A stretch of 54,970 bases of DNA from a virus. Positions 8,638 through 46,569 of this stretch are shown piece after piece. Location of the stretch: the IMG/VR virus record IMGVR_UViG_3300037264_009246, positions 1 to 54,970 of that record, one strand, 5' to 3'. Under the pieces are notes generated by a model. That model was not told the DNA's origin and searched no databases. It saw nothing but the letters and a program-made list of their open reading frames with translations. Within the stretch, counting starts at the first letter, position 1, and every line of letters starts with the position of its first letter. The position numbers and the translations under genes are program-made.

Positions 8638-11181
8638 ATGGTTAGTTTTCCAATTCCTTCGCAAGTGCCCGGAGCTGACAGGGCAACAGTTGATATAGCT
8701 GCGGCGCTGAAAGCAATGCCCGATCCATGTGGATTCGCTGCAAAATCAGTATTTATAGTTGCTATAGCTAAACCAACAAACACATCTTTACCATTATATT
8801 TACCTGTATCTGGTGCAACTGTAGAGGGTAGAGTTTCATCAATGGGGCTAACTGTAAAATCATTATCAGCCTTTGCAGACCTGAAAGGTATTACTTATTC
8901 CTGTATATCCATTATGCCCTGGTGGGTTGGTATCACGTATGAATTTAGAGTTAAACAATATAATGTTGATTTTGGAAATGGTTTCGGACAGTATAGTAAA
9001 TGGAAATTTGCTACAGACATCGTAGTCTTTGAGGGTAAAATAGATATCCCATGCGTAAGCGGGACTTTTCCTATAAATGCAGACTTCTTAAACCTAATAC
9101 CCAGGGTATGGTCTGATCCCATATCGATTAACGTTCCTGGATACAAAACAATCACACCCACAGGTATGCCGTTTACCATTTACGTAAACAATGTTGAAAT
9201 TGGCAGCGGAACATTTACCGGCGCTCCATTAAGTTTTACTTCTACTAAAAAACTGACTGATATACCAGCATTATTAGCGGCAATGGGTAAGTCAGTTGAA
9301 GTAAAGGCAGTAATTAAATTCGGGGTGTGTGAATGGGTTGGTAGAAAGACGATTACACTACCCGCGCCGCCAGAGGTACCATGCTTAGGGAGTATGATCT
9401 TCAATCTGCCTAATTGGCAAGATATATCAAGCAAGCCGTCACTGCCAGGCACAATACCAATACCATTTACAATAACGGCTGGTTCTGGAGCAACATTGCC
9501 GCCCACCATACCCTTAGTGATTAGTATAGACGGCAGGAAAGTCGCTGATTGGGAGTCTTATAAGGGTGAAAACAGTATGGATATACTGAAAATAATAAAA
9601 GATGGGCTCGGTGTAAGTGCACTAAGTAGCAAACATACAGTTGATATAAAAGTTAATAACGATAAACTCAGAGACTGCAAAATTCCAGCCGAGTCTTTTG
9701 AGATACCAAGTTTATTACCGCCGTGTTCAGGAATTATCAATATCGGGGATTTTGAAGATCTTACACAGATAATAAGCAAACCTTCACTGCCTGGCAGCAT
9801 ACCTGTACCTGTAACCGTAACTGGCAAGAGTTTACCGGCAAGCATGACCCTGTCGATACTTGTAGATGGTACTGAAAGAACGACCAGAACGGTGGTCAAA
9901 GATGGAAGTATAAACATAGATATTCTATCTATAATACGATCACTTCCACTCGGCACTGCTGCACTTAAAGATAGTCATAAAATAGATATAAAATCAAAAC
10001 TGCCTGACTGCGATATACTCCCTGCATTTATTAACGTACCTGCATTAGTAAAGGAAATTATTGAATTTCTAAAAGGGATAATTAAAATCCCTTCAATACC
10101 AAAACCACCTAAAATACCATACCCCATCAACATTTCAATAGACGGCATATTAGAAGGCGGGCCGCCAATATCAAAAGAAGTAGATCCAGGGACTCATAAT
10201 ATCACTGTTGAGCTTAAGGGAATGGCAAATATTTACAGGAAAGTCTATGTGGAATCTGGCGAAACAGTCACTATAACGGATATTGCATTTATTGAAGAGG
10301 TAGTGATAGAGGTATGCCAGATAGGTCAGGAAAGAAAAATCGGCTGTCCTGACGGTACTGAAATAGTAATAGAGAAATGCGAAAAAGATCCGACCACAGG
10401 CATTAACAGGTGGGTGCCAACAGGAAATACGTGCCCTCCTCCTGAAATGGGTAAAATCATTAAGATACTAACATATCCCGCCGGTGCAGCCCTGGAAGCG
10501 TTTGACGGTATGGATGTGACCATAACTGCAAGCGTGGTTTGCGGAGCATCTCCAAGCAGCGGCGAGACTGCGATATTCCTTGTGGACGGGAAAGAAATTT
10601 CAAGGGGTACTACGAGCGGTGGATTTGTATCATTTCCCTGGACAGCCACAGTAGAACCATCTCGAACCCACAAGATATGCGTCAGCATACCCAAAAGCAG
10701 CCAGTGTTCACAATACGGTGAAGCGCGGGACTGTAAGACCATTACAGTGAGCAGGGCAGTACCCGATGTCCTGGAGAGGCTGAAGAAGGAACGGGAATCA
10801 TATTTAGCTCAACTTGAAGCGCAGAGGATAGAGCGTGAAAAGATACGCGAGATATCGCTGACGTTACCGCTGCAGCCCTATGTGCCTGTAGTCACAATAC
10901 CCACAATACCGGAAGTTCCCATAATATCAATTCCTGTTTTGCCACCGGCAGAACAGGTACCCGGGATAATAGATATCCCGGCAGTGACAGCGCCTCCGGG
11001 AGTACCTTACTCTATCGAGATACGGATAGATGGAACTATTATAGGCCCGCCGCCAGTATATAAAGAAGTAACTCCTGGAACCCATACAATTACAATCAGT
11101 TTAAAGGGTTTTACGCCAATATCAAAGAAAGTGAATTTAACAGCAGGTCAGATACTCACGATTCAAGAGGGGTTCATATGA
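8638..11181 (+). CDS. Large multi-domain surface protein with PEGA domains (847 aa)
   Basis: 847 aa, no signal peptide and no membrane anchor. Two internal repeats of about 115 residues (starting near 245 and 365) share a PS-LPG-IP then I-DG-x then ILSIIK then H-x-DIK pattern with paired cysteines. PEGA-type domains follow near 505-560 and at the C-terminus 785-847, each with I-IDG, PP-x-KEV, PGTH-IT. A coiled coil (about 715-740) and a proline/isoleucine linker connect them. PEGA domains occur in archaeal and bacterial surface proteins. Lack of a signal peptide suggests assembly into a virion inside the cell, as a spike or fibre. A TATA-like box about 35 bp upstream and no ribosome site suggest a leaderless start. 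Confidence 0.8.
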   Translation: MVSFPIPSQVPGADRATVDIAAALKAMPDPCGFAAKSVFIVAIAKPTNTSLPLYLPVSGATVEGRVSSMGLTVKSLSAFADLKGITYSCISIMPWWVGITYEFRVKQYNVDFGNGFGQYSKWKFATDIVVFEGKIDIPCVSGTFPINADFLNLIPRVWSDPISINVPGYKTITPTGMPFTIYVNNVEIGSGTFTGAPLSFTSTKKLTDIPALLAAMGKSVEVKAVIKFGVCEWVGRKTITLPAPPEVPCLGSMIFNLPNWQDISSKPSLPGTIPIPFTITAGSGATLPPTIPLVISIDGRKVADWESYKGENSMDILKIIKDGLGVSALSSKHTVDIKVNNDKLRDCKIPAESFEIPSLLPPCSGIINIGDFEDLTQIISKPSLPGSIPVPVTVTGKSLPASMTLSILVDGTERTTRTVVKDGSINIDILSIIRSLPLGTAALKDSHKIDIKSKLPDCDILPAFINVPALVKEIIEFLKGIIKIPSIPKPPKIPYPINISIDGILEGGPPISKEVDPGTHNITVELKGMANIYRKVYVESGETVTITDIAFIEEVVIEVCQIGQERKIGCPDGTEIVIEKCEKDPTTGINRWVPTGNTCPPPEMGKIIKILTYPAGAALEAFDGMDVTITASVVCGASPSSGETAIFLVDGKEISRGTTSGGFVSFPWTATVEPSRTHKICVSIPKSSQCSQYGEARDCKTITVSRAVPDVLERLKKERESYLAQLEAQRIEREKIREISLTLPLQPYVPVVTIPTIPEVPIISIPVLPPAEQVPGIIDIPAVTAPPGVPYSIEIRIDGTIIGPPPVYKEVTPGTHTITISLKGFTPISKKVNLTAGQILTIQEGFI

Positions 11182-14073: not shown

Positions 14074-15006
14074 ATGACTGACTACGGCTACACCGCAGGT
14101 GGAGATGATAATATCACCACTACTGAGGAATATGATAGTGTAGCAAATACCTGGACAGTCAAACAGCCCATGAACACAGGTAGAGGGGAACTGGCAGGAT
14201 TTTCATTTAATGGATACGGCTATGCAGCAGGTGGATGGGGGACCAATGCAGTTGTTGAGAAGTATGATAATGCCGCAAACACCTGGACTGCAAAAGCCAG
14301 CCTGAACACAGCGAGATATGGTCTTGCAGGATTTTCACTTAGCGGATATGGCTACACAGCAGGTGGATATGATGCTGGCGCCCTTGCAAATACTGAAAAG
14401 TACGATGAGGGCGCAGATACATGGACTAATAAAGCTAACATGAACTCAGCAAGGGCATTACTGGCAGGGTTTTCACTGAACGGATATGGCTACACAGCAG
14501 GAGGACAGTTAGGTGTTAAAAGTGCGATTACTGGCAAGTATGATGGTGTCGCCAACACATGGACACCTAAAGCAAATCTGAACACAGCCAGAATTGGTCT
14601 TGCAGGATTTTCACTTAATGGATATGGCTACACAGCAGGTGGTACTTTAGTCGGGATCGCTGGTTTCACTCCTGCTACTGAGAAGTATGATGATGTTGCT
14701 AACACATGGACACCGAAAACCGACCTGAACACAGCGAGATGGGGTATATCTGGATTTTCACTGGACGGCTACGGATACACAGCAGGCGGGTATCAAGGTG
14801 GCAACCAATCAGTTACTGAGAAGTATGATGATGTCGCCAATTCTTGGACAGTCAAACAACCCATGAACACATCGAGAAGATATTTGACAGGATTTACAAT
14901 ACAACCAGCAGCAGCAGTGACAAATATCGAAGGTAGATCAATATTCCGAAGTATCGGAGCGTCAGTATCAGGCGGGGTCGCGTGTGGGCGCGGTAAAAAG
15001 AGATGA
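14074..15006 (+). CDS. Kelch-like six-repeat beta-propeller protein (310 aa)
   Basis: Six repeats of about 44-50 residues, each with GYGYTAGG, then EKYD, then NTWT, then LNTAR and LAGFSL; this is the Kelch blade pattern (GG doublet, then Tyr and Trp). Six blades would close a propeller. The last 40 residues are basic (ends GRGKKR). No signal peptide. It starts 4 bp after the protease stop and is the last gene of this unit. A host-binding or virion-decoration role is plausible. Confidence 0.88.
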   Translation: MTDYGYTAGGDDNITTTEEYDSVANTWTVKQPMNTGRGELAGFSFNGYGYAAGGWGTNAVVEKYDNAANTWTAKASLNTARYGLAGFSLSGYGYTAGGYDAGALANTEKYDEGADTWTNKANMNSARALLAGFSLNGYGYTAGGQLGVKSAITGKYDGVANTWTPKANLNTARIGLAGFSLNGYGYTAGGTLVGIAGFTPATEKYDDVANTWTPKTDLNTARWGISGFSLDGYGYTAGGYQGGNQSVTEKYDDVANSWTVKQPMNTSRRYLTGFTIQPAAAVTNIEGRSIFRSIGASVSGGVACGRGKKR

Positions 15007-15771: not shown

Positions 15772-16371
15772 TTACTGGACTGGCTCCCATCCCACCAATT
15801 TCTTTCTAATTTCCATTCTCTCAGTTTCAGTGAATATTGAAGGTATAATCATATAGTGACGCAGGGCCGTAAGTTGTGTATGCCCCTGCCGTAAACACAC
15901 TTCATAGGGTTGAAATCTCGTTGCGAGCATCCAGCATTCAATAGTAGCTCTTGTCATTTTTGCAGTTATTCCTTTTATACCAAGACCTGCATGGTCAGCC
16001 CACCTTTTCAGATTATCATCCCATGTTTGGAGTGTCGGGGGCTTCTTATTCGTGAAAAAATAAGGCAGTTCACCTTCGAGCTGCGGTGGAACCGGAGAAA
16101 TATATCTCTCAGGCATTTGCCTTTTCGCCTTGTTATTAGCTTCTTTTGGAAGGTGTATGACCTTTCTGGATTTCTGCCACCATTCAGGGTGATTGTAAAA
16201 TCTTATGACCTCAGCATACCTCATACCCGAGTAAAGGCACACATTCAGAATCGTCAGCAAGTAAGGTTTATCTATTTGCTGGCATATCTTGTCATAATCG
16301 GATGGACTGAGGATCCGGATCTTATATCCTGTCTGCGTGGTTAAGAAAATAGGTTCTGGCATTAGATTCAT
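15772..16371 (-). CDS. Small tyrosine recombinase / integrase (199 aa)
   Basis: 199 aa, essentially only the catalytic domain. Visible residues: Arg51 in SGMRYAE, Arg141 in AKMTRAT, His164 in RQGH and the nucleophile candidate Tyr173 in LRHYM. Archaeal element integrases have this arrangement. The N-terminal core-binding domain is missing, so it may be a minimal recombinase, a Xis-like resolvase for dimers, or the surviving part of a longer gene. No ribosome site; a 22-bp palindrome lies directly upstream. Confidence 0.82.
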   Translation of the reverse strand: MNLMPEPIFLTTQTGYKIRILSPSDYDKICQQIDKPYLLTILNVCLYSGMRYAEVIRFYNHPEWWQKSRKVIHLPKEANNKAKRQMPERYISPVPPQLEGELPYFFTNKKPPTLQTWDDNLKRWADHAGLGIKGITAKMTRATIECWMLATRFQPYEVCLRQGHTQLTALRHYMIIPSIFTETERMEIRKKLVGWEPVQ

Positions 16372-19229: not shown

Positions 19230-20519
19230 TTAACTAATAGCTGCCAGTTGTTCAAGTGCCTGCATCTTACCGCCGTTCAAGTTCGGGTTCAGTGTCTTGA
19301 TCGCATTAAGGAAGTCCTTTACCTCAACGTTGCGCCTGTGAAGCTTCGCTATGGTAAATGCTACCCTCAAGATACTCTCCTTGCGCCTTGGACTGCCCCT
19401 TATACCTTCATCGAGGTCTATGTACATGCACATCAGCGTCTTTACCTTATCACGTACTTCCCTGGGTATTGAAGGCTCAAAATCCCTGATCCAGTTCAGG
19501 TAGTTCTTCAGGTCAAAACCATCATATCCCTCTTTATCCTCAAACCAGTGATCCACAATGGAGCAGGTTATCTTTTTCTCATTTTCTCCCACCGGAGCCT
19601 TCAACTCAAATTTGAAATCAAACCTGTCCAGGAGTTCAGGGCTGAAATGTGTTAAGCGGTTGGCTGCTGCTATCGCCCGAACCTCAGCATCCAGGAGTGC
19701 CGAATGTTTGCCAACATCTATTTGCACCTTTCCTTCCTCCATAGCCTCAAGAAGCCCCTGTCTGTCTTTATCTGAGAACTTATCAAGCTCGTCTATGCAG
19801 ATGATACCTTTATGCGCCTTGGGGAGTGCGCCCAGGACAATTTCATCCCCGCTCGCATCTGCTGTAAGACCCACCTTTGAAGTACGCTGGCTGCAAAACT
19901 TAGCTCCGATCTGATACACTATCCAGTTCATGAGTTGTGACTTTGCACTTCCAGGATCACCGTGCATGAGTACGTGAATCCTTCCCCTGTCCCCGAACTT
20001 ATCCCCGTGACTTGCCATGCTGAGAAGCAGTGCCTTTTTTACTGGCGCCATCCCCTCAATTTTCGGGTTTATCCATTTATTCCAGTAATCGAGCATGTCA
20101 GTACCTTCAGATAATAGCTTTTCAAACTGCTGAATGAGTGCAGGGTCAAGTATCTGTATCTGTATCGAGTTTTCATGCCGTTCAACTTCAGCGCGCTCAC
20201 GTTCGATTTCATCTAAGACCTGTTCAAGCTCCTTCCCGTCCACTGCCAGCCTGTAATGCGTGGCTGAATTGCTCTTATACCCATACTTGATGATTTTCTG
20301 CTGCATCAGGATATTTACATGCCCTCCTGTCCACTGAACATCCTCAAACCCCCATCCGAACCTATTTTCACGATAGATTTCATCCACTGCTATGATTTTT
20401 CGCAGCCTGGTTATGTAGTTGATATCCCTGTTGCACAGCGTCCTTACCCGGTCTGCAAGTTCCGCTTCCTGACCGTACTTTGATAGTTCACCTGGCATAT
20501 TTTCTTTCTTTTCATGCAT
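19230..20519 (-). CDS. mcm: Minimal MCM helicase with a winged-helix-like N-terminus (429 aa)
   Basis: 429 aa from ATG 20519 (AAGGTGAG upstream). The AAA+ core is complete: Walker A GDPGSAKS at 187-194, Walker B CIDELDK at 241-247, sensor 1 AAANR at 284-288, and an arginine finger at Arg299 in PELLDRFD. It would unwind the element's DNA at the fork. Host MCMs are about 650-700 aa; the usual N-terminal OB and zinc domains are missing, and residues 25-100 look instead like a winged helix. The C-terminal segment (about 365-410) forms the lid and a helical end. Confidence 0.88.
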   Translation of the reverse strand: MHEKKENMPGELSKYGQEAELADRVRTLCNRDINYITRLRKIIAVDEIYRENRFGWGFEDVQWTGGHVNILMQQKIIKYGYKSNSATHYRLAVDGKELEQVLDEIERERAEVERHENSIQIQILDPALIQQFEKLLSEGTDMLDYWNKWINPKIEGMAPVKKALLLSMASHGDKFGDRGRIHVLMHGDPGSAKSQLMNWIVYQIGAKFCSQRTSKVGLTADASGDEIVLGALPKAHKGIICIDELDKFSDKDRQGLLEAMEEGKVQIDVGKHSALLDAEVRAIAAANRLTHFSPELLDRFDFKFELKAPVGENEKKITCSIVDHWFEDKEGYDGFDLKNYLNWIRDFEPSIPREVRDKVKTLMCMYIDLDEGIRGSPRRKESILRVAFTIAKLHRRNVEVKDFLNAIKTLNPNLNGGKMQALEQLAAIS

Positions 20520-20670
20520 GTTTCTCACCTTGCTGTTCTGTCGCCACTATGGAAGTACAGTTTTTACACAATAGTTTTTTTGTAGTATCATCAAAAATAA
20601 CCATGTTCAATTCACATAAAATTCCACAACCATCACAATTAGCTACCAAAACCTTCTTTTTAATGTCCAT
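20512..20670 (-). CDS. Small two-CxxC zinc ribbon protein (52 aa)
   Basis: 52 aa with CDGCG near residue 12 and CKNC near residue 37, the spacing of a compact zinc ribbon. It overlaps the start of the MCM gene by 8 bp, so its translation is coupled to that of the helicase. Possible helicase accessory protein; evidence is positional. Confidence 0.6.
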   Translation of the reverse strand: MDIKKKVLVANCDGCGILCELNMVIFDDTTKKLLCKNCTSIVATEQQGEKHA

Positions 20671-21999: not shown

Positions 22000-22686
22000 T
22001 TATGTTTTAATCGTTACTGATTCGTTTTTCATGTACTGCTGAACTATCTTATCAATCTCTGAATTGCGGTTATTGAGTGCTGCCATCTTTTGAAGTTCAT
22101 TGACTGCTGCTCTCATATCCCCATCAACTTTCCTGGCTATGTTCCGTAAAACATCATCCTGGATACTGACTTTTTCCTTAACCGCTACTCGTTTTAATCC
22201 CTCTACGGTATCGGCTTCACTTATGCGCTTGAACTCGAATAACGCACATCTTGACTTTATGGGTTTGATTATGCCGTTTATGTCATTACATGCAAAGATA
22301 AAAACCGTGTTCCTGGTCTTCTCGATTGGTCGCTTTAAAATGTCCTGAGCTGTCGGTTTTAACCCGTCTGCCTCATCAAGAAGTATAACCCTGATATCTG
22401 ACCCTATCGGTTTGTGTTTTAATGCCCTTATCACCCTTTTTCTCATGTCCCCTTCTTCCCTTGTGTCGCTGGCGTTGAGTTCTATGAAGTTCGCTTCAAA
22501 GTACTCACCTAACAGCTTATGGGCGATAATGTGCGCCGTTGTGGTCTTGCCTGTTCCCGCTTCGCCGTAAAAAAGTAAATGCGGGATATCCCCTGATAGT
22601 ATAAAACTCTCAATGGCTGTCAGGACTTCATTAAGCCCTACCATCTCGGTAAAGGTCTGTGGTCTGTACTTCTCTATCCAGTTCAT
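22000..22686 (-). CDS. Truncated RFC small-subunit-like clamp loader (228 aa)
   Basis: 228 aa AAA+ protein. It starts with the clamp-loader signature WIEKYRP, and has Walker A GEAGTGKT at 41-48, Walker B LLDEAD at 102-107, and the SRC motif at 145-147. The first two domains are intact, but the C-terminal collar domain (about 90 residues in host RFC-S of about 320 aa), which holds the pentamer together, is missing. It may join a mixed complex with host RFC or act on the sliding clamp in another way. It overlaps the upstream 59-aa gene by 4 bp. Confidence 0.85.
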   Translation of the reverse strand: MNWIEKYRPQTFTEMVGLNEVLTAIESFILSGDIPHLLFYGEAGTGKTTTAHIIAHKLLGEYFEANFIELNASDTREEGDMRKRVIRALKHKPIGSDIRVILLDEADGLKPTAQDILKRPIEKTRNTVFIFACNDINGIIKPIKSRCALFEFKRISEADTVEGLKRVAVKEKVSIQDDVLRNIARKVDGDMRAAVNELQKMAALNNRNSEIDKIVQQYMKNESVTIKT

Positions 22687-25646: not shown

Positions 25647-26852
25647 ATGGAACAGCGAACGCTCCCTAACTTTTTCCCTGAGATGGTCATAAAAACTCCC
25701 ATCGAACCTCTGACAACAACCAGAGAGGAAAGAGGGCAAGCCATAGCGGATTCATACGGCAACATTCAGCGATTTGATGAACGCACCTATGCCGTGAAAT
25801 CCCAAGCAGGCAATGGATATTATGCCGTGACGCTTACCGAAATCGGCTGGAAATGTTCTTGTCCCGATCATACAACCAGGGGTGTAAAATGCAAGCATAT
25901 CTGGGCTGTGGAATTGAGTTACAGCATCAGGGAGCAGGTTAGGAAAAGCGTTGTACTGCAACCGATAATTATCTCGGAATGCCTCTATTGTCATTCTACG
26001 AACATTCAGAAAAACGGTATCAGGCATAACAAAAGCGGTGATATTCAAAGATTTGTTTGCTATGAATGCGACAAGACATTCAGCATCAATATTGGCTTTG
26101 AAAAGATGAAGCATAACCCGCAGGCAGTAACAACCGCTATGCAGTTGTATTTCAGTGGAGAATCTCTCAGGAAAACAAAAGACTCCCTGAAACTGATAGG
26201 CGTAGAGGTCTCACACCAGACCGTTCATGAGTGGATTGAGAAATATATGAATCTCATGAAGCGATATGTGGATAAGTTGAAACCGAACGTGGGAAGTACC
26301 TGGAGAGCAGATGAAATTTGGATTAAGTTCAGCGGTGATATGAAATATCTATTCGCTCTCATGGATGATGAAACCCGTTACTGGATTGCTCAGGAAGTCG
26401 CTGATACAAAGTTCATGCATGATGCTCAGGGACTACTCCACGAAGGAAAAGAAATAGTAGGCAGGCGACCAAATACTTTCATCACAGATGGTTTGCAGAG
26501 CTATAAAGAAGCGTTCAATAAGGAATATTACACAAGCAAAAACCCAAGAACGAAGCACATCAGCGCAATAAAATTAGCTGGCGACATGAATAATAACAAA
26601 CAAGAGAGGCTAAACGGAGAAATTAGGGACAGAGAGAAAGTAATGCGTGGACTGAAAAAGAAAGACACGCCTATCCTCAAAGGCTATCAAATATATCACA
26701 ACTTCATAAAAGGACATCAAGGATTGAAAGGCAAGACTCCCGCCGAAGCCTGCGGGATAAAAGTTGAAGGTAATAATAAGTGGATTACTCTAATCCAGAA
26801 CGCTGCTCATCAACCGAAAATTGACAGCGTTCATCATCAACCTAAGACCTGA
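25647..26852 (+). CDS. IS6-type DDE transposase with SWIM zinc finger (401 aa)
   Basis: 401 aa. Residues about 45-92 hold a SWIM zinc finger (CSC, then KCKH). A CxxC...CxxC ribbon follows (CLYCHS, then CYECDK), then a helix-turn-helix, then the DDE catalytic core with Asp in WRADEIW, Asp in FITDGLQSY, and Glu in RLNGEIRDREK. AGGAGG precedes the ATG. The stop codon lies inside the right inverted repeat. The reading frame is intact, so the element may be active. Confidence 0.9.
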   Translation: MEQRTLPNFFPEMVIKTPIEPLTTTREERGQAIADSYGNIQRFDERTYAVKSQAGNGYYAVTLTEIGWKCSCPDHTTRGVKCKHIWAVELSYSIREQVRKSVVLQPIIISECLYCHSTNIQKNGIRHNKSGDIQRFVCYECDKTFSINIGFEKMKHNPQAVTTAMQLYFSGESLRKTKDSLKLIGVEVSHQTVHEWIEKYMNLMKRYVDKLKPNVGSTWRADEIWIKFSGDMKYLFALMDDETRYWIAQEVADTKFMHDAQGLLHEGKEIVGRRPNTFITDGLQSYKEAFNKEYYTSKNPRTKHISAIKLAGDMNNNKQERLNGEIRDREKVMRGLKKKDTPILKGYQIYHNFIKGHQGLKGKTPAEACGIKVEGNNKWITLIQNAAHQPKIDSVHHQPKT

Positions 26853-26941: not shown

Positions 26942-27961
26942 CTATCCATTGCGTATCTCTCCCCACATTTGTTCTATCCCGAGCGCTTCCTGTAAGTTAT
27001 GGCTGTTAGCCCATTTCAGCCAGCCCATTGTACTCGCTATTGATGATTGGTATTGAAGCTCCGTGATCTTGCCTTTATGGAGTAGCTCGGGAAGCGCCTT
27101 CATTCTGCGTCTGACCCTTTTGGTCGTGCTTTTCCTGACTAGAATGTGATTTGGAAAGTGTCTGTATCCTACAAAGTCGATTCCCTGGGTTATTGGGAAC
27201 ACGTTACATTTGCTAAATGTTAATTTCAGCTTTTCAGCGATGTATTCCCGGATTATCTCTGCAAGTTCGCTCAGGTATTTTTTATCCTCATGTATAACTA
27301 AGAAGTCGTCACAGTAGCGGAGATAGTGTCTGATTTTATGCTCATGCTTCAGGTATTGGTCTATCTCGTTCATGTAAAGGTTGCCAAACCACTGGCTTGT
27401 GTAATTGCCAATCGGAACGTTCTTCCCGCCATCCATGCTGTAAATTATATTTCTTATAAGCCATAGAGTATCCTTACATTTTATTTTGCGCTGGATTATT
27501 CCATATAAAATATCATGGTTCATCGAGGGATAGAACTTTGAGATATCCATCTTCAGACAGTAGCCTTCAGCGCCAACTTCTCTTATGAACTGCATCGTCC
27601 TCTGGCTGGCTTTGTGGATTCCTTTACCTTTCCTGCAGGCGTAGGAATCGTGGATGAATAACCCTTCCCATATTGGCTCAAGCACGTTCATTAGCACGTG
27701 CTGAACTATCCTATCTGGATTAAATGGTAGCCTGTAAATTATGCGCTTTTTGGGTTCGTGGATTGTTTTGAGTGTGTATTCTGATGTGGTGAGTGTCTTA
27801 TCTATGAGCGACTTCTGGATTTCTAAAAGATTACTTTCGAGGTTTTTATCAAACTTCTTAATCGTGTCCTGCCAGCTTTTTCCTTTCTTTGCTGCCTTGT
27901 ATGCATTGTGGATATTCTCTATATCAACTAATTTCTCAAAAAGCTTGCCGTGTCGTTTCAT
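26942..27961 (-). CDS. DGR reverse transcriptase (339 aa)
   Basis: 339 aa from ATG 27961, which gives the usual MKRHGKLFEK-type N-terminus of DGR reverse transcriptases; GTG 27988 is the alternative. The catalytic motif is YCDD at 216-219, with the metal Asp139 in KMDISKFYP and the DGR-type IGNYTSQWFGN at 184-194. It copies the template repeat with errors at adenines for transfer into the variable repeat. It lies just after the template in the expected order. No gene for the common Avd accessory protein is recognised nearby. Confidence 0.93.
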   Translation of the reverse strand: MKRHGKLFEKLVDIENIHNAYKAAKKGKSWQDTIKKFDKNLESNLLEIQKSLIDKTLTTSEYTLKTIHEPKKRIIYRLPFNPDRIVQHVLMNVLEPIWEGLFIHDSYACRKGKGIHKASQRTMQFIREVGAEGYCLKMDISKFYPSMNHDILYGIIQRKIKCKDTLWLIRNIIYSMDGGKNVPIGNYTSQWFGNLYMNEIDQYLKHEHKIRHYLRYCDDFLVIHEDKKYLSELAEIIREYIAEKLKLTFSKCNVFPITQGIDFVGYRHFPNHILVRKSTTKRVRRRMKALPELLHKGKITELQYQSSIASTMGWLKWANSHNLQEALGIEQMWGEIRNG

Positions 27962-28108
27962 TGGTGTTTTTTGAAGAGCAATTTTCACTTTCGTTACTAA
28001 CTGCTCTTCATCTCCGTTGTGTATTTTGCTTATCTGGTAAGCAAGGCGGTCAGGTCCAGCCAGGAGTTAGCTACCGCAAGGAGTCTTGCCATTACTATTT
28101 TTCCTGTA

Positions 28109-28223
28109 TCTGCAAGGAAGCGCCTGCTGATATTCGTATTCGCATTCCAGCGATAATTATTCGCATTACGTGACTGCGAACTGCAATTCGTGCCATTATT
28201 CCAATTGCCGCCTGCAAGAAGCT
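28109..28223 (-). repeat. DGR template repeat (115 bp)
   Basis: 115 bp aligning without gaps to 28301-28415. The two differ at 19 positions, and every one is an adenine in this copy on the - strand. It lies between the target gene and the reverse transcriptase and is the non-changing template of the retroelement. An 86-codon open frame runs through it but is probably incidental. Confidence 0.95.
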
Positions 28224-28290
28224 TCCGATGACCTGATAGCCTGCAATATGTTTTCATATTACCTTTAGATTTTTTCGCTCCGTTATCCAT

Positions 28291-29322
28291 TCACAGTGGC
28301 TCCGCAAGGAAGCGCCCGCCGATAGCCGTACCCGCAATCCAGCGATAACTATTCGCACTACGCGACCGCGAACCGCAATCCGCGCCATCATTCCAACCGC
28401 CGCCCGCAAGAAGCTGTGTATTCCCGTAAGAAGTATTCCCAAATGTGTAGAACGAACCTTTTGCACCGGGTAAGTTATACCAGCCTCCAACCGTTCCATC
28501 GTCCAGTCTTGCTGATGGTGTTTTCAGCCATTGCCATAATGCGCCTGCACAGTCTTCACAACCTATGTTGCTTATCATGCGCCTCGCTGCAGTATCAACG
28601 TGCCCACCTGTAGTTACAGGGTCTGCTGAGCCTGTGATGTTCGTTTCTTCGTTGCTGCCTGCGGCGATTGCCTGGAACTCATTATCGTCCAGCAGACATT
28701 TTCCAACCGCTGCGCCATCGTCCACAAAATCCATCCAGTCACGCGTGTCTGATATGGTCGCATTGTAGGCAGAAGCGGTGCTTGCCCCAGTGCCGCTCGC
28801 TAGATATATATCCACCCACTTCTGGATTTCACTCGACCATACCATGCCTCCTGGGTTGCTCCGTGGGCGATGTTTCAGGTCCCATACGCTTCGTGGCAGG
28901 ATCTCATTTGCAAGATACCCGGTCAGGGTATGCCCAGCGATTACGCCCACATTAACACAGAGAGTATGGAATCCACCAATCTTTCTGCTTGTGGCTGCCG
29001 TGAACCCTGTTGGGAATGTGCTTGCTAAACTGATTTTCCCAACAACAGAACCAGCACTTTCACAGAGATATACGTAATAATCTTTTCCATTGCTGATTGC
29101 ACCTGTATCCATGTCTGTCGCAGTCGATAGTGTAATATCCGTATCGAGCAGATACCAGTTGTTATCGATGTTTATCGGTATATTGTTCGAGCCTTTGACG
29201 ACCACCGTGGTCTTACTCGCCCATTCAAGCAACCGGTCGAGCTTGTTGAGAGGAAAGTTTCCGAGAACCGCTCCTGCGATCACGAAATCCGAGACGTCCT
29301 TTGTGATTTTCCTGTTTGCCAT
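28291..29322 (-). CDS. DGR target protein with C-type-lectin-like variable domain (343 aa)
   Basis: 343 aa. The last ~100 residues fit the formylglycine-enzyme/C-lectin fold used by DGR targets, with ALWQWLK, GGWYNLPG, SFYTFG and the final LLAGGGWN...YRW...GGRFLA. Variable positions fall in residues 304-340. The N-terminal 200 residues include a fibre-like beta part. It is preceded by phage-type fibre and assembly genes, so it is probably the virion's host-binding protein. Confidence 0.93.
   Translation of the reverse strand: MANRKITKDVSDFVIAGAVLGNFPLNKLDRLLEWASKTTVVVKGSNNIPINIDNNWYLLDTDITLSTATDMDTGAISNGKDYYVYLCESAGSVVGKISLASTFPTGFTAATSRKIGGFHTLCVNVGVIAGHTLTGYLANEILPRSVWDLKHRPRSNPGGMVWSSEIQKWVDIYLASGTGASTASAYNATISDTRDWMDFVDDGAAVGKCLLDDNEFQAIAAGSNEETNITGSADPVTTGGHVDTAARRMISNIGCEDCAGALWQWLKTPSARLDDGTVGGWYNLPGAKGSFYTFGNTSYGNTQLLAGGGWNDGADCGSRSRSANSYRWIAGTAIGGRFLAEPL
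28301..28415 (-). repeat. DGR variable repeat (115 bp) at the target gene 3' end
   Basis: Relative to the template, 17 A-to-G, 1 A-to-C and 1 A-to-T changes; no other differences. The changes alter 13 amino acids in the last 40 residues of the target protein. Beyond the repeat the two sequences diverge at once, with a non-adenine mismatch at the first base, which marks the 3' edge where initiation signals are expected. Confidence 0.95.
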
Positions 29323-29597
29323 TATAATGTCCCTTCTGTGAGTATTACCTCAGCGACTTCCTGTCTGCTTGCAAAGCCTTTCTGCTTCCAGGGCGGCATA
29401 GGGTTCTCAACAACTGCCGTGTTCCAGCCCTTATCTGGGTCTTTGGGGTCAATCGGCATAGTTGCTTTTATGACTGTACTATCATTGAGAGCAGCTATTT
29501 TCTTCATCTCTTCAATCGCCTGCACTTTGTACTCAGGCATTGCCAGCAGGTTCAGATAATCCTGTTTTGTAGCAACATTTTTGGGGTATCCGCGCAT
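29322..29597 (-). CDS. Small phage-type protein before the DGR target (91 aa)
   Basis: 91 aa. KNVATKQDYLNLLAMPEY near the start and a C-terminal PWKQKGFASRQEVAE helix resemble small proteins next to phage fibre genes. It overlaps the target gene by 1 bp, so translation is coupled. Possible fibre assembly protein; function unproven. Confidence 0.65.
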   Translation of the reverse strand: MRGYPKNVATKQDYLNLLAMPEYKVQAIEEMKKIAALNDSTVIKATMPIDPKDPDKGWNTAVVENPMPPWKQKGFASRQEVAEVILTEGTL

Positions 29598-29615: not shown

Positions 29616-30056
29616 TTATATCTTATTTGGATAGATTTTCATATAGTAAGGAACATTATTTATTAGAAATTTAGCTATGCGTGGTGTGCCAGATATTATT
29701 TTTACTAACGTAAAATTGGGCTTGGCATCAAGAGTACCTGCGTAGGAAACGCTCGCTGAGATTGTAGGGTACATCTGGAAAAAGTGATTTTCACTATTGG
29801 TTTGATAATATACAGTCAATGGTGTGCCTGATAATGTAGCATCGTTTAATGTGTAGATATTATCTGGTGTAAAACTATCGTTTGTTGCGCCGCTTTCTAT
29901 AGAAATCGTTGGATATACTTTAGCATAGTAATACGTTCCACCATTTACTGCTCTGATGATCTTTGGTGTACCTGATAATGTAGCGTCACTGAATGAAAGT
30001 AACTCTATTAATCGTGCCTTATAATCTATTCCCCCTCCTCCAAATATCTGGCTCAT
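29616..30056 (-). CDS. Repeat-containing fibre-like protein (146 aa)
   Basis: 146 aa made of three repeats of about 44 residues, each with DATLSGTP-like (or IISGTPRI), a YY or F strand, and YPTIS or YPNK. All-beta, no signal peptide. It lies directly after the 215-aa fibre-like gene. A trimeric fibre shaft or tip is a reasonable guess. Confidence 0.7.
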   Translation of the reverse strand: MSQIFGGGGIDYKARLIELLSFSDATLSGTPKIIRAVNGGTYYYAKVYPTISIESGATNDSFTPDNIYTLNDATLSGTPLTVYYQTNSENHFFQMYPTISASVSYAGTLDAKPNFTLVKIISGTPRIAKFLINNVPYYMKIYPNKI

Positions 30057-30704
30057 TTATACCTCTGTGAAATGCTGCACCCATCCGCTTACCTGGACTG
30101 CACCGGATAGATTGATTATAAACGCCTCTCCATCATTGGTTTCCAGTGGGTAGAAATCACCGTCAAATACCATACCGCCATTAGCAGCGAAGGGCATAGC
30201 CCCTGTAAGATTATTTGCACCACTTTTAAGGGTTACATTCACAGCCGAAGCACAGAGTATTACCAGTTTTACAAGTTTATGCTTATTGCCTGGCGATGCT
30301 GCAATTATCGTATTGTCCCCTGCGGTGGCAATAGTTATCGGGGTTCTGGATGAGGTCTGTTTTAACGCAGCTCGCGTACTGAGTGCAACATCTAACTTAG
30401 AAAAATCACCTGACCAATCCCTTCCAGTCTGTGCCGTACCGCCCACTTTAGTTAGTTCGGAGCTGACAACATCAACATCAGTGAGTGCCCGTATCTGCCT
30501 TGGATCTATCTCAACTCCTGCACTGCGAAGCTGGACAAGGGTATCAAAAGTAGCAGCCCTCTGTAATATCTGCTGTCCCTGGGATCCGTATATGATACCC
30601 AATAACCGTGCTGCCCTGTTGGTAACATCTACATTTGTGGCTGGTGAAGTGGCCTGCAGTTGGTCAAGTATCTGCTTCAAAAAGATCTGTTCCTCAACGC
30701 CCAT
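30057..30704 (-). CDS. Tail-fibre-like structural protein (215 aa)
   Basis: 215 aa. The C-terminal ~90 residues (NTIIAASPGNKHKLVKLVILC, LKSGANNLTGAMPFAANGG, EAFIINLSGAVQVSGWVQH) closely match a small beta domain common in phage structural proteins. The N-terminal half is helical. This is the clearest phage-type virion gene in the window. It overlaps the upstream gene by 1 bp. Confidence 0.8.
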   Translation of the reverse strand: MGVEEQIFLKQILDQLQATSPATNVDVTNRAARLLGIIYGSQGQQILQRAATFDTLVQLRSAGVEIDPRQIRALTDVDVVSSELTKVGGTAQTGRDWSGDFSKLDVALSTRAALKQTSSRTPITIATAGDNTIIAASPGNKHKLVKLVILCASAVNVTLKSGANNLTGAMPFAANGGMVFDGDFYPLETNDGEAFIINLSGAVQVSGWVQHFTEV

Positions 30705-36380: not shown

Positions 36381-37364
36381 TTATTTCTCCTTGATCATCA
36401 TATCTGCAATTTCACCCGGAGCAGACAGAAGCAGCTCCTCACATTCAAGATATGGTATTTTCGTACAGATTATATTCGTCCTGGCTTCAAGGATCTCCTT
36501 ATCAAGTATTTCCCTGAGAGTTTTCTGTGCCCCTTCCTGTGACCATAATTCCTTAGCCTTCGATAGATCAACAGCCCTGTTCTTGACATCTACGAAGAAC
36601 TCCTTAACAAGCCTGTCAATACCCATACACTTGAAAAGCAGCATCTCAGAACCGAAACCACTGGTCTTTTTACCATCGATAAGTATTTGTAGATCCGCAA
36701 TATCATCCGCGATCTGCATGGCATTACCAACGTGAAGCCCGTAATTCGAGAAATGTACCATCTCATCCTTATACGCGCAGAAATCGTCCAGGCTGTTGCA
36801 GGTCATACACCTTGATGCCATGTGGCCCCACAGAGAGGCAAGACTGAACAGCCGCCCGGTTTTTTGTGATATTACTGCATCGTATAGCATGGTTGCAGGA
36901 AGATCCGGATTAGAGAACAGTTCCTTAACCACTCCCTTGACCATGCTCCGCTGCGTCTGAGCCAGGGAGCCAACGAACCGTTCACCATGTCGTGATGCAA
37001 TGTCATAAGGCATGGATAGAACCCCTATTGTGTCAAGCATGGCCTTCTTATGACCTTTACTGAGGTGAATGGTCGGCAGTCCCCTGCGTTCCGTATCTTC
37101 ATCGAGCATATCATCCAGGATGAGTGACGCGCTGTGAGCCAGTTCAACCGCGCAGGCTAAATTAAGTGCTGCGTCCCTGTTCTGTTTTTTATCGGACATT
37201 GAATCAAAGACCAGGAGTAAAAGACCGGCACGCAGACGCTTACCTTTTAAAAGCATTGGTGTTATGTCAGGATCCTTCAGCTTCTCCCGCGCGATCTTGT
37301 CTATGCGTTCATCGACCTGGGGTTTTATTTCATTAAGGTATCCCTGGAATGTTCTATTGCTCAT
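36381..37364 (-). CDS. Polyprenyl (geranylgeranyl-type) diphosphate synthase (327 aa)
   Basis: 327 aa with a complete active site: GKRLR at 41-45, the first Asp-rich motif DDMLDED at 84-90 followed by RRGLPT, KTG at 168-170, and the second Asp-rich motif DDIAD at 220-224. It would add isopentenyl units to make a C15-C20 or longer chain. The residue before the first motif (Leu/Ile rather than bulky aromatic near 80) does not by itself decide chain length. It overlaps the upstream 87-aa gene (ATGA) and belongs to the operon with UbiA-like, chorismate-lyase-like and reductase genes. Confidence 0.88.
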   Translation of the reverse strand: MSNRTFQGYLNEIKPQVDERIDKIAREKLKDPDITPMLLKGKRLRAGLLLLVFDSMSDKKQNRDAALNLACAVELAHSASLILDDMLDEDTERRGLPTIHLSKGHKKAMLDTIGVLSMPYDIASRHGERFVGSLAQTQRSMVKGVVKELFSNPDLPATMLYDAVISQKTGRLFSLASLWGHMASRCMTCNSLDDFCAYKDEMVHFSNYGLHVGNAMQIADDIADLQILIDGKKTSGFGSEMLLFKCMGIDRLVKEFFVDVKNRAVDLSKAKELWSQEGAQKTLREILDKEILEARTNIICTKIPYLECEELLLSAPGEIADMMIKEK

Positions 37365-37624
37365 TTCTTTGAACCTCCTATAGGGAAATTACGCCCTGTA
37401 AACATCTTCTCATATCTCCTGATTACCGGGATAATTGGTACTGGAATGCGTTTCTTAGGTTCTTTCCAGGCAAACATCTGTCTTGCTTTTTCCTCACGCA
37501 CATACGCTTCAAATTCATCAAATAAATGGTGACGTGGGGGGTTGTAATAGGTAACTGTGTTTGCAGTTGCGGTGCCTATATCTAAAAATATCCCTCGTAT
37601 CTTATATGTCCCTGAATATGTCAT
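37361..37624 (-). CDS. Small basic protein between reductase and prenyl synthase (87 aa)
   Basis: 87 aa from ATG 37624, overlapping the reductase stop (TAATG); AAGGAGGG lies upstream. Strand-rich start, then a basic and proline-containing end (KKRIPVPIIPVIRRYEKMF). It overlaps the next gene by 4 bp, so it is translated with the pathway enzymes and may be a structural or targeting partner. Confidence 0.6.
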   Translation of the reverse strand: MTYSGTYKIRGIFLDIGTATANTVTYYNPPRHHLFDEFEAYVREEKARQMFAWKEPKKRIPVPIIPVIRRYEKMFTGRNFPIGGSKK

Positions 37625-38601
37625 TATATTCTTGCCCTCCTTAAGAGCCTGAACGCATCCCATAGACCTATTTTCATATCCATACGCCGTGTATTACGCT
37701 GTAATACAAGCGCACTGCCTAAGCCTATCGGTTTTCCCCGTATGAACCTTTCAACTACCTCACGCTCCTTTTCCATCCATGCAAATTCACGCAGTATAGC
37801 ACGCTCATAATCAACAGCAGAGTAAAGGTTTTCCAGTTGAAACAATGCGCTTCTCATGCCGTGTATGATCCCGTCACCGAGCATTGGAGCAACGCAACCT
37901 ATCGCCTCTCCGATGCCCCAGACATTTTCATGCACGAAGGGTCTGCTGCCCCTGGGCGCGGTCTGGCGCACTTTACTGTAGCAGGCACACTTTACACCTT
38001 GTCCGGAAGAATATGGTTGTATCCAGTTTATATCCTTCAATATCTTAATCGGGTCAGTAACAAGACTGCCTGCCCCTATATGAAATTCCGTATCAGATAG
38101 TGGAAAGCTCCACGCATAACCTATCTTGCTGACCTTGATACGCATTTCAGGCAGCAGTTCATCACTGGTCATGCGATACTGATAGCACGGTGATATCAGG
38201 TCATTGGGTATCTTCGGTAAAAATGCACGCGCTACACCCGTAGCGTCAATAACCCTGTCATAATTGAACCTTAACCGTTCAGACGGTTCATATTTTTTTA
38301 TTTCAGCATCACCAAGCAGGTCTTTTATCAGCTTCGGTTTATCGATTGTCAGCATGTACGCTTTTATTTTTATTTCATCGAACCAGATGTGATCAAAAAG
38401 GCGAAGGATATAATCATTGGGGTTCAGCCCTGCCTTTTCAACAAGTTCTTGAAAACCCTTTGTCGTTCCCCAGGCGCAGGGATTAATACCGCAGTTTGTT
38501 TTATGTTCCAGGTCAAATATCGTCACGTCAAACCCATTATTTTTAAGCAGCCTGTACATATACGCGCCAGATATCCCCGCACCTGCGATTGCGATTCTCA
38601 T
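37624..38601 (-). CDS. Geranylgeranyl-reductase-like flavoprotein (325 aa)
   Basis: 325 aa. FAD loop GAGISG at 7-12; a cysteine block NCGINPCAWG at 36-45 in the position of the conserved cysteines of archaeal geranylgeranyl reductases; and the second FAD motif VWGIGEAIGCVAPMLGDGI near 225-245 followed by GMRSA. It would reduce isoprenoid double bonds on lipids or on the prenyl tail of a quinone-like compound. It is about 60 residues shorter than the host lipid reductases. Confidence 0.85.
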   Translation of the reverse strand: MRIAIAGAGISGAYMYRLLKNNGFDVTIFDLEHKTNCGINPCAWGTTKGFQELVEKAGLNPNDYILRLFDHIWFDEIKIKAYMLTIDKPKLIKDLLGDAEIKKYEPSERLRFNYDRVIDATGVARAFLPKIPNDLISPCYQYRMTSDELLPEMRIKVSKIGYAWSFPLSDTEFHIGAGSLVTDPIKILKDINWIQPYSSGQGVKCACYSKVRQTAPRGSRPFVHENVWGIGEAIGCVAPMLGDGIIHGMRSALFQLENLYSAVDYERAILREFAWMEKEREVVERFIRGKPIGLGSALVLQRNTRRMDMKIGLWDAFRLLRRARI

Positions 38602-41346: not shown

Positions 41347-42738
41347 TCACCTGCGCCCTTTTTCTATTTGCTCCATTCTTCTCGTCAGCTCATCGATTAC
41401 ATTCATTAACTGCGCGACACCTGGTACCTGCGCTCCGGGTATGGCTTCTTCAAACTCCTTCTGTATCCTTTCAATTCTCGATTTATGCTCAGGTATGATA
41501 TAAATTTCCCAATCCTTGATTGTTTTAAGAGCTTTTTTCTCATCCATATCCGCTGCGTATGTATCAAGCGCAGTTTTATCATTTGTCCATCCACCCATAG
41601 CCGAAAGGGTTTTTAAGCCGCCTATTGCGTATATTGCTGCCGACCATGTGTGTCTCAGACCATACAGGATATAATCTTTTTCAGATTTAATTAAACCCTT
41701 TGATTTCAGGGCCTCCCGCCTGCGTCTTATAAATTCGTCATAAGAGCCAAGTGCTGCAAAATCCTTAAAAATATACCCTCTGCCTGTCATATTATTTTCA
41801 CGGCACCATTTCAATAAGTCATCGCGCAGACCTGCCGATATATAAACAAAAGTTGGCGGGAATTTTTTAGCTACCTCTTCTCCTATTTTCTTTTTTTCTC
41901 TATCGTATAACTTCAGGGATGCAATCGTGTAGAATGTCCGGTCAAGTGCGTCTGTTACTGGTTTGTCCTCAATATCACCACAGGTCATATAATATGCCTG
42001 TATAGGTCTGAGTCCTGTCTGTAACATCAGCCTGGAAAACAGTGTATGGTATGGTTTGGCTCCAAAAAGTATTGAATTAAAAAACTCATTTAATTCCTGT
42101 TCATTATATAATTCAACAGCACCCGGACTTTTTGGCATTTCAACTTGTAATCCTGTGAATGGGTTGCTCATAACGTATCGTTCAATATCCAGGAATTTCC
42201 CGAAACCCATAAGACTCGATCTGATCTGCGCTCGAGAGAACTCACTATCGCTTACAGCAATAGCGAACGCTTTTCCATCGCTTGATGTTATACCGTACCG
42301 TAATTTTGCACCTGGGACCGGGCGTTCCAGGTCTTTCATAGTTATTTTTTTATTCTCCCGCTCTGATAACCACTGAACGAACATTGCAGGATACCTTACA
42401 GCAATATCGTATGATTGCCAGCTTTTGTATTTCTTAAGAGATACTACATAATGTTGAAGTATGGCTTTTTTCACCTGTTCATCCGCGTTTATCTCCTTTA
42501 CCGCTTCTGACATTATTTTATAATAATCATCCTTTATTTTAGGTATTATTTGTAATTTTATTCGTGCGTTTGTGTAGAGTGATTTCCACTTTGGGCCAAC
42601 TAAAATAGGTCTCTGGATTGGGCCAGCGGGTCCACCAACTTTAGAATAACCCATCCTTGCACCCCTGAAAAAATATTCACCCGGTCCGCGTCCTTTTCCT
42701 TCCGGATCGGTTTCATAATACTTAGGTTGAGAAACCAT
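41347..42738 (-). CDS. Tyrosine recombinase / integrase (463 aa)
   Basis: 463 aa; AAGGAGAT precedes the ATG. Catalytic residues: Arg244 in TGLRPIQA, the LRHTW block with Arg362 and His363, Trp384 in GGWTND in the place of the second His, and Tyr394 in LDTYAA. The N-terminal ~130 residues would bind the core site and residues 160-220 the arms. The C-terminal extension is helical. It is the main candidate for integration into the host chromosome. Confidence 0.85.
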   Translation of the reverse strand: MVSQPKYYETDPEGKGRGPGEYFFRGARMGYSKVGGPAGPIQRPILVGPKWKSLYTNARIKLQIIPKIKDDYYKIMSEAVKEINADEQVKKAILQHYVVSLKKYKSWQSYDIAVRYPAMFVQWLSERENKKITMKDLERPVPGAKLRYGITSSDGKAFAIAVSDSEFSRAQIRSSLMGFGKFLDIERYVMSNPFTGLQVEMPKSPGAVELYNEQELNEFFNSILFGAKPYHTLFSRLMLQTGLRPIQAYYMTCGDIEDKPVTDALDRTFYTIASLKLYDREKKKIGEEVAKKFPPTFVYISAGLRDDLLKWCRENNMTGRGYIFKDFAALGSYDEFIRRRREALKSKGLIKSEKDYILYGLRHTWSAAIYAIGGLKTLSAMGGWTNDKTALDTYAADMDEKKALKTIKDWEIYIIPEHKSRIERIQKEFEEAIPGAQVPGVAQLMNVIDELTRRMEQIEKGRR

Positions 42739-45000: not shown

Positions 45001-45231
45001 ATGCCAAGAATACAATTCAGGCTCAGTGACGAGCTGAACACTTTTGTTGAAAGTCGGGCTAAGGAGAGTAAAATATCACCGAGCGAATATCTCAGACTTT
45101 TGATCGTTCGTGATATTGATGATACTACGCGAGCTAAAAATCTGGCACTTGAAGAAGTCAATAAACAACTGGAAGAGCTTCAGAAAGATGTTGTAAAGCT
45201 TCAGGATATAAAGAAGCTGCTGGCATACTAA
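45001..45231 (+). CDS. Ribbon-helix-helix regulator with coiled coil (76 aa)
   Basis: 76 aa from ATG 45001. RIQFRLSDELNTFVESRAKESKISPSEYLRLLI is a standard ribbon-helix-helix domain; residues 45-76 form a coiled coil. A TATA box (aaatatata, 44966-44974) lies at the right distance for a leaderless start. It lies between two leftward units and may control the 63-aa gene. Confidence 0.8.
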   Translation: MPRIQFRLSDELNTFVESRAKESKISPSEYLRLLIVRDIDDTTRAKNLALEEVNKQLEELQKDVVKLQDIKKLLAY

Positions 45232-46259
45232 GGTTTCTCATCCCACATTTTCTCTGATGACATTCGTTGTTCTCTTCTTTCTTGATCTAAACGCCTTTTA
45301 GTCTCATCACCAACTATTCCTTCAGCCAGCTTCCTGCTCACCCTCTGTATGCATTCTGCATATTCCTTTTGATCTGGTGATAGCCCTAACAGCTTGGTGC
45401 ATAATCCAGCAGCTTCATTCTGCGCCCATGTACTCTCCTGGATGGCTTTTACCCTCTGATCATGTGACAGTCCGGGTTCGTCTCTTGCCTGCATTACCGT
45501 TTCGGGTGCCAGTACCTTGATCCTCACGCCTTCAATATCAACTTCAGTTAAGTCCTCACCGCAGTAATCCTTAATCGTGGACATTGCTGCTTTCATTGCA
45601 ATATCGCATTTATCATCTACTTTATCAGTTTCCATAACTCTTTCAATTCCTCCAATTCCTGTTCCTGGCATCCTGCCAGCCTCTTTATAAGAATAATATC
45701 CTTCTTTACCAATAATAAGGGCATCGATCACATCTATTCCCAGCAGCCTGAACCCTTCAGACAGTTTTGTTCTGATACTATCATCCTCAGTTGATGGAGT
45801 GGGTATTCCTGATGGATGATTGTGTATAAGCATAACACCGGCTGCGTTGGCAAGGACCGCGCCCTTGACCGCTTCCCTGGGATGAATGAGAGCTGCGTTT
45901 AACGTGCCCTCGCTTATGTTCTCAACTCCGATAACGCGGGTCTTGTTATCCAGGTAAATTACCTTGAACCGCTCCCGGTCATAATCCTCCATCTCGCGCA
46001 CGAACTTGGCCACATCTTCAGGGACAGAGAGTTTTATGTTAGGCACGTTCCTGATCTGCTTGAGCTGGACCCTGTGGGTGTCAAGATCCCTCTTGATAAG
46101 CTTCTCCCCGCCGGTTGGTTCAGGGTATGTGACCGCATGGAACTGAGGGCATGAATCTTTGATTATAAATGACCCGTCCTCTGGCGGTGGGTACTTGATA
46201 ACCTTCTTTTCCTTTTCCTTTTTCACGTCCTCATCCTTCTTTTCAGTATCATCGTTCAT
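45228..46259 (-). CDS. RadC/JAB-type (MPN+) protein (343 aa)
   Basis: 343 aa from ATG 46259; a longer frame to 46319 would overlap the upstream gene. The metal site is H146-N-H148-PSG...D159 with the upstream Glu in an LIHPREA block, the JAMM signature of RadC. The N-terminal ~60 residues are lysine-rich and the C-terminal ~170 helical. RadC-type proteins often come with phages and integrative elements, where they may cleave a peptide, remove ubiquitin-like tags or act in recombination. Confidence 0.85.
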   Translation of the reverse strand: MNDDTEKKDEDVKKEKEKKVIKYPPPEDGSFIIKDSCPQFHAVTYPEPTGGEKLIKRDLDTHRVQLKQIRNVPNIKLSVPEDVAKFVREMEDYDRERFKVIYLDNKTRVIGVENISEGTLNAALIHPREAVKGAVLANAAGVMLIHNHPSGIPTPSTEDDSIRTKLSEGFRLLGIDVIDALIIGKEGYYSYKEAGRMPGTGIGGIERVMETDKVDDKCDIAMKAAMSTIKDYCGEDLTEVDIEGVRIKVLAPETVMQARDEPGLSHDQRVKAIQESTWAQNEAAGLCTKLLGLSPDQKEYAECIQRVSRKLAEGIVGDETKRRLDQERREQRMSSEKMWDEKP

Positions 46260-46569
46260 AGGGTTTCTTTGCCTGGCTTTTCTTCCGTTCTTCTTCTCTC
46301 TTCTGCTTTTCGATCTCATTTAATATTTGAGTCTGGATATCAGCAATGAGATTTACCATTTTATTAAACTTACTTGAATGTTCTGCCTCTTGATCTGCAA
46401 TACTTTCCAGAGCATTAACCATTGAAGAATCAACTAAACTTCTTGCTACATTAGCCCATTGCCTGTACTTTCTGGCGGTATCCGATTCTTCTGTTACAAC
46501 ACCTTTAAAATTTTGTTTTAATCTTTCAAGGTCGTTGCGCCTGCTGTTGAGCTTACTTATATCAGCCAT
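46249..46569 (-). CDS. Helical protein, possibly ferritin-like (106 aa)
   Basis: 106 aa from ATG 46569 (GGTGATTAAA upstream). A long helical protein with ARKYRQWANVARS and ALESIADQEAEHSSKF, in which ExxxH pairs resemble the ferritin/rubrerythrin helix motif. Too short for the whole four-helix bundle, so this may be coincidence. It overlaps the RadC gene by 11 bp. Confidence 0.55.
   Translation of the reverse strand: MADISKLNSRRNDLERLKQNFKGVVTEESDTARKYRQWANVARSLVDSSMVNALESIADQEAEHSSKFNKMVNLIADIQTQILNEIEKQKREEERKKSQAKKPYER

What the first reader, a model, noticed from the sequence alone, without database searches (positions are those of the whole stretch)
26942..29322. Archaeal diversity-generating retroelement with purely adenine-directed changes
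Template and variable repeats are each 115 bp and differ at 19 positions, all at template adenines (17 to G, 1 to C, 1 to T), altering 13 residues of a lectin-like protein. The reverse transcriptase has YCDD and the DGR-type IGNYTSQWFGN. The heavy bias to G and the lack of any other change suggest recent activity. The target sits beside phage fibre-type genes, so host-range switching is likely.
Basis: seen in the sequence. Interest (0 to 1): 0.85.

Follow-up and report, generated by a model that had tools for sequence, protein, structure and literature searches.

The report
Archaeal virus gene-diversifying retroelement, Avd-less type
This archaeal virus-like DNA carries a complete, probably working cassette that rewrites the tip of a host-binding protein by sloppy copying of adenines; the kind is known, but its branch appears to turn adenines in the sequence CAG into G almost every time, a regularity that I did not find described.

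Summary
It is a real diversity-generating retroelement (DGR) on an element with archaeal replication genes. It belongs to the known Avd-less 'target-VR-TR-RT' kind: no bAvd in the window or in 43 related records. The RT probably starts at 27961, not 27988. Between TR and RT lies a covarying structured RNA (181 two-sided changes against 50 in shuffles), related to Rfam DGR RNAs. Relatives show activity: one pair differs at 15 of 7,997 bp, all in the VR at template adenines. The G bias is not evidence of recency; it is largely sequence context. In this lineage, adenines in CAG become G 77/81 times (27/28 at silent sites), whereas in 25 Avd-type DGRs 30/36 stay A. That recoding rule is the interesting part. 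Host-range switching is plausible but unproven; no terminase, portal or capsid gene was recognised in the 55 kb, and the genes beside the target are only weakly virion-like.

The parts
28291..29322 (-). DGR target gene, 343 aa, Mtd-like (major tropism determinant) receptor-binding protein
   Evidence: Pfam mtd_2nd 6.5e-23; phrog_11262 tail 3.1e-66; PDB 1yu4 1.3e-17; AF2 model (pLDDT 83) matches Mtd with TM 0.75, E 1.5e-21
28301..28415 (-). variable repeat (VR), last 37 codons of the target
28109..28223 (-). template repeat (TR), 33 adenines; potential 3e16 protein variants without stop codons
27972..28112 (-). conserved structured spacer RNA: P1 (28112-28102 with 28065-28057; its 5' side is the TR 3' end), P2 (28043-28027), P3 (28010-27972)
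   Evidence: 93% of cells paired, 181 two-sided changes against 50.5 in shuffles and at most 51 when slid; window fold z -3.8; sub-threshold Rfam RT-14 and Phage_DGR
26942..27961 (-). DGR reverse transcriptase, 339 aa, YCDD and IGNYTSQWFGN
   Evidence: RVT_1 3e-19; phrog_1423 5.8e-125; BPP-1 bRT structure 8ub7 3.2e-57; start codon by conservation
29322..29597 (-). 91-aa gene of unknown function, conserved with this cassette in 22 relatives (upstream of the target or downstream of the RT)
   Evidence: AF2 model pLDDT 88, alpha/beta, no PDB match, not Avd-like
29616..30056 (-). 146-aa protein, same position in relative L010
   Evidence: 37% identity, 2e-18
30057..30704 (-). 215-aa protein, possibly virion-associated; C-terminal half resembles a protein in L121 next to weak head-decoration and tail matches
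19230..20528 (-). MCM helicase (archaeal marker)
22000..22686 (-). RFC small-subunit-like clamp loader
48461..49687 (-). Orc1/Cdc6 replication initiator (archaeal marker)

Best explanation
This is an intact DGR of the Avd-less 'target-VR-TR-RT' kind in an archaeal virus or virus-derived element. The TR transcript, with a folded 3' spacer, is bound by the RT without a recognisable Avd protein. The RT copies the TR from its 3' end into cDNA with errors opposite adenines, and the cDNA replaces the VR at the end of a Mtd-like receptor-binding gene. Two classes of template adenine behave differently: those in AAY (Asn) codons become any base and diversify the binding face; those in CAG (and mostly CAC) become G nearly always, so they are recoded rather than randomised. 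Shown here: the anatomy, the fold of the target, the conserved RNA, the context rule across the lineage, and A-specific VR turnover in relatives. Inferred: current activity in this very virus, RNA-only RT recruitment, and host-range switching. A further inference is that the CAG sites at the repeat ends mark TR apart from VR, so that the cDNA matches the VR better than the TR.
For: 19/19 changes at A. RT aligns over its full length with BPP-1 bRT. Target has the Mtd fold. Spacer RNA with strong covariation, found by the model in relatives not used to build it: L045 61 bits, L086 57 bits. bAvd rings in BPP-1 but not in the window or 43 related records. Near-identical relatives: L037/L038 15 substitutions in 7,997 bp, all in the VR at TR adenines; L027/L030 12/12 in the VR, 11 at A; L041/L042 15/15, 14 at A; L033/L034 18/20, 17 at A. 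CAG rule: 77/81 to G, 27/28 at silent sites, 40 of 44 loci entirely G; independent VRs of one TR agree on G at 27 of 34 CAG sites while AAN sites differ at 181 of 262; Avd-type DGRs 30/36 unchanged, Fisher 1e-22.
Against: No reads or second isolate of this virus, so its own activity is untested. No typical hairpin with a GRNA loop behind the VR; only a 6-bp stem in the VR-TR gap. A diverged Avd elsewhere on the missing part of the genome cannot be excluded. At non-silent sites the context rule may be mixed with selection on the protein. The comparison set for the rule is small (36 CAG sites, mostly from one bacterial phylum).
Confidence: 0.9

Rival explanations
1. A decayed or silent DGR: the cassette was active once and is now frozen, for example after insertion of the neighbouring IS240-like transposase gene.
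For: An IS240-like transposase gene ends 90 bp from the RT 3' end; only one VR state is known for this virus.
Against: RT is open and full-length with intact motifs and start; no TR-VR difference outside adenines; target frame open; close relatives are active.
Confidence: 0.1
2. The cassette diversifies something other than host attachment, such as a surface or cell-cell binding protein of a plasmid-like archaeal element, since no terminase, portal or capsid gene was found on the 55 kb.
For: No recognised terminase or other hallmark virion gene; the element carries replication, ParA, integrase and sialic-acid-like surface-sugar genes.
Against: Target is a Mtd homologue; the cassette with its 91-aa partner is shared with the tailed virus vir525, and terminase occurs in records of the near relatives L004, L005 and L009; the record is a fragment.
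Confidence: 0.2
3. The A>G excess and the CAG rule come from selection on the protein (Gln to Arg, Ser to Gly needed by the fold), not from the RT.
For: Arg and Gly are conserved at several of these positions.
Against: 27 of 28 silent CAG sites inside the variable tract are also G; independent VRs repeat it; DGRs of another lineage keep A.
Confidence: 0.15

Closest known systems
Bordetella phage BPP-1 DGR (Mtd, bRT, Avd)
   Same: RT over its full length (8ub7, 3e-57), Mtd fold of the target, A-specific TR/VR, order target-TR-RT, folded spacer
   Different: no avd between target and TR; YCDD instead of YMDD; another spacer RNA (the model does not find BPP-1); AAT instead of AAC codons; archaeal element
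ANMV-1 DGR (AdtA), the archaeal virus DGR of Paul et al. 2015 (PMC4372165)
   Same: archaeal virus, Mtd-like target, repeats of 114-115 bp beside the RT
   Different: an Avd ORF is drawn in ANMV-1; its sequence was not found in the collections searched, so no direct comparison
Avd-less lineage-3 DGRs, e.g. crAssphage LMMB (PMC7290462)
   Same: target-VR-TR-RT order without avd; crAss-like phages are among the RT hits at 40-46% identity
   Different: other target family, bacterial hosts
Caudoviricetes sp. vir525 (BK063673), host Methanosarcinales
   Same: cassette: RT 65%, target 55%, 91-aa gene 41% identity
   Different: apart from one short ORF match, no other gene shared with the window
Rfam RT-14, RT-17 and Phage_DGR RNAs
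   Same: position in front of a DGR RT; RT-17 reaches threshold in distant relatives; P2 and P3 hairpins align
   Different: window scores below threshold (27.3 against 48.1 bits)

Membership tests
Diversity-generating retroelement | RT of the DGR clade with the SQ motif | tested here: met
   phrog_1423, 8ub7, IGNYTSQWFGN
Diversity-generating retroelement | TR/VR differing at template adenines | tested here: met
   19 of 19
Diversity-generating retroelement | VR at the end of a C-type-lectin-fold target | tested here: met
Diversity-generating retroelement | IMH block and hairpin behind the VR | tested here: inconclusive
   adenine-free shared 3' block GGCGCTTCCTTGC present; only a weak 6-bp stem
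Diversity-generating retroelement | turnover of the VR in the population | tested here: inconclusive
   shown in relatives, not for this virus
Avd-less lineage-3 type DGR | target-VR-TR-RT order and no Avd | tested here: met
   with BPP-1 as positive control
Avd-less lineage-3 type DGR | RT inside the published lineage-3 clade | not tested
   the reference set of Wu et al. was not available
BPP-1-type DGR | avd between target and TR | tested here: not met
   67 bp between target and TR, no bAvd on the record
Tailed archaeal virus (Caudoviricetes) | terminase, portal, capsid genes | tested here: inconclusive
   terminase model absent and no portal or capsid match among the ORFs scanned on a 55-kb fragment
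Rfam RT-14 RNA | gathering score 48.1 bits | tested here: not met
   27.3 bits

The most novel reading that the evidence does not exclude
The RTs of this Avd-less (YCDD/YADD) DGR lineage recode adenine to G almost deterministically in CAG, while randomising adenines in AAY codons. The recoded sites at the repeat ends would make each cDNA match the VR and mismatch the TR, giving retrohoming its direction.
Probability: 0.55. Interest if true: 0.7.

Novelty: new member of a known kind. Interest (0 to 1): 0.5.

Why it matters
It adds a complete Avd-less, RNA-rich DGR cassette in an archaeal element. More generally, it shows that DGR lineages may differ in their mutation code: in this one CAG is rewritten to CGG nearly every time, in Avd-type ones it is spared. 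The 2012 DiGReF survey called substitutions essentially random (PMC3521204), and the only detailed context map known to me is for BPP-1 (PMC12875486). If the rule is a property of the RT, it predicts which template letters are variable and which are fixed, and may explain how TR and VR are told apart.

Tried and rejected
1. G bias as a trait of an RT clade: G-rich loci are scattered on the RT tree, 6 changes. 2. G bias from AAT against AAC codons: no correlation. 3. The window's residual G excess: P about 0.003 against context expectation, not notable among 61 loci. 4. The 86-aa ORF over the TR (28030-28290): not accepted as a gene, since its matches follow the TR and the spacer RNA. 5. The 91-aa neighbour as a replacement for Avd: its model is not a helical bundle and has no PDB match. 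6. Second copies of this virus: exact search with the VR flank found none. 7. Searches with the MCM and the 602-aa protein found no viral relatives.

Full report
Observation. On the - strand the window holds a target gene (29322-28291), its variable repeat (28415-28301), a template repeat (28223-28109) and a reverse transcriptase (to 26942). The repeats are 115 bp and differ at 19 positions, all of them adenines of the TR: 17 to G, one to T, one to C. Chance would place all 19 on the 33 adenines with probability 3e-13. Thirteen residues change; three changes are silent. The RT start at GTG 27988 is probably wrong: nearly all of about 45 relatives begin with MKRHG or a close variant, which in the window is the ATG at 27961.

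Proteins. The RT matches Pfam RVT_1 and the phage DGR family phrog_1423 and aligns over its full length with BPP-1 bRT, 8ub7, E 3e-57. The target matches the Mtd second domain and Mtd itself. A model built from an alignment of 23 sequences (pLDDT 83) is a Mtd fold, TM 0.75, E 1.5e-21. The VR is the C-terminal stretch, as in Mtd.

Element and host. The record is a 55-kb virus record in IMG/VR. It carries MCM, an RFC-like clamp loader and Orc1/Cdc6. The 11 virus records with similar MCM are all archaeal, and the Orc1/Cdc6 hits among plasmids listed are from haloarchaea and Methanosarcina relatives. The nearest annotated relative of the cassette is vir525, assigned to Methanosarcinales. The window shares with it essentially only the cassette and the 91-aa gene. 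The terminase model found nothing in the window, and no portal or capsid family was matched by the ORFs scanned. Near relatives L004, L005 and L009 do have terminase. So this is an archaeal element with a virus-type cassette. That it is a tailed virus is likely by kinship but not shown on this fragment.

No Avd. The bAvd model finds BPP-1 (positive control) but neither the window nor 43 related records. An Avd-less cassette of the order target-VR-TR-RT is described as typical of lineage 3, and about a quarter of DGRs lack the accessory gene (PMC7290462). The 91-aa neighbour, conserved in 22 relatives, is predicted alpha/beta and matches nothing.

Spacer RNA. The stretch between TR and RT is a conserved structured RNA. 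On a plain MAFFT alignment of 38 sequences, three helices plus an inner pair stack are formed in 93% of cells, with 181 two-sided changes against 50.5 in shuffles and at most 51 when the partners are slid. The 5' strand of P1 is the 3' end of the TR. An alternative CUCC-GGAG pairing has weaker support. A covariance model finds the RNA in relatives not used to build it (L045, L086, L054), but not in BPP-1. Rfam already has DGR RNAs of this sort: RT-17 reaches threshold in distant relatives, while RT-14 and Phage_DGR touch the window below threshold. In BPP-1 the spacer is known to fold, recruit bRT-Avd and supply the priming adenine (PMC12875486). The same role here, without Avd, is inference.

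Activity in relatives. The window's own reads were not available, and an exact search for its VR flank found no second record. Near-identical pairs in the same lineage serve as a substitute. L037 and L038 differ at 15 of 7,997 bp, all 15 in the VR at TR adenines; L027/L030 at 12, all in the VR, 11 at adenines; L041/L042 at 15, all in the VR, 14 at adenines; L033/L034 at 20, 18 in the VR, 17 at adenines.

The G bias and the CAG rule. In 61 dereplicated TR/VR pairs the outcome depends on context. Inside the variable tract, adenines in CAG are G in 77 of 81 cases, in 40 of 44 loci without exception, and in 27 of 28 fourfold-silent sites. Adenines in AAT are unchanged in about 40% and otherwise mixed. 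Independent VRs of one TR agree on G at 27 of 34 CAG sites and 11 of 11 CAC sites, but differ at 181 of 262 AAN sites. In 25 Avd-type DGRs (BPP-1 and others found by their bAvd gene) the same context is unchanged in 30 of 36 cases, Fisher 1e-22. The lineage of the window has YCDD or YADD at the active site where BPP-1 has YMDD. In the window, nine of the 17 A>G lie behind a C (six CAG, two CAC, one CAA). The G excess is therefore not a clock. It does not follow RT clades, and the remaining excess is unremarkable among 61 loci. The earlier DiGReF survey concluded that substitutions are essentially random, with G the commonest (PMC3521204). The rule may thus be unreported, but the literature searched was limited to open papers.

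Limits. Comparators for the CAG rule come mostly from one bacterial phylum and are few. At non-silent sites selection on the protein may contribute. The idea that CAG sites at the repeat ends separate TR from VR rests on their position only.

Verdict. A genuine, probably functional DGR, a new member of a known kind. The lineage-wide recoding at CAG is the part worth following.

Noticed in passing
window 2430-7587 (+): A run of surface-sugar genes: MptE-like, DegT aminotransferase, NeuB, Polysacc_synt_2 epimerase, CMP-sugar synthetase-like CTP_transf_3 and UDP-GlcNAc 2-epimerase, i.e. a sialic-acid-like (nonulosonic acid) pathway on the same element as the lectin-like target.
   Followed up: partly
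window 25647-26852 (+): IS240-like DDE transposase gene with a SWIM zinc finger, converging on the RT and ending 90 bp from it.
   Followed up: partly
window 36381-38601 (-): Polyprenyl synthetase and a Rossmann oxidoreductase close together, as in archaeal isoprenoid metabolism.
   Followed up: no
window 14074-15006 (+): Kelch-repeat protein with a 138-bp tandem repeat, next to a subtilase gene.
   Followed up: no
window 8638-11181 (+): 847-aa protein with repeated beta domains and PEGA domains, possible surface protein.
   Followed up: no
window 15772-16371 (-) and 41347-42738 (-): Two integrase-like genes on one element, plus a RadC-like protein at 45228-46319 and a ParA-like protein at 51481-52206.
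   Followed up: no
L083, L084, L085, L103: RTs 60-66% identical lie on contigs binned as Bacteroides, Shapirobacteria, Nitrospirae and Omnitrophica, perhaps mis-binned viral contigs.
   Followed up: no
L050, L054, L073, L109: Rfam family RT-17 falls on the TR-RT spacer of DGRs, which identifies that family as a DGR RNA.
   Followed up: partly
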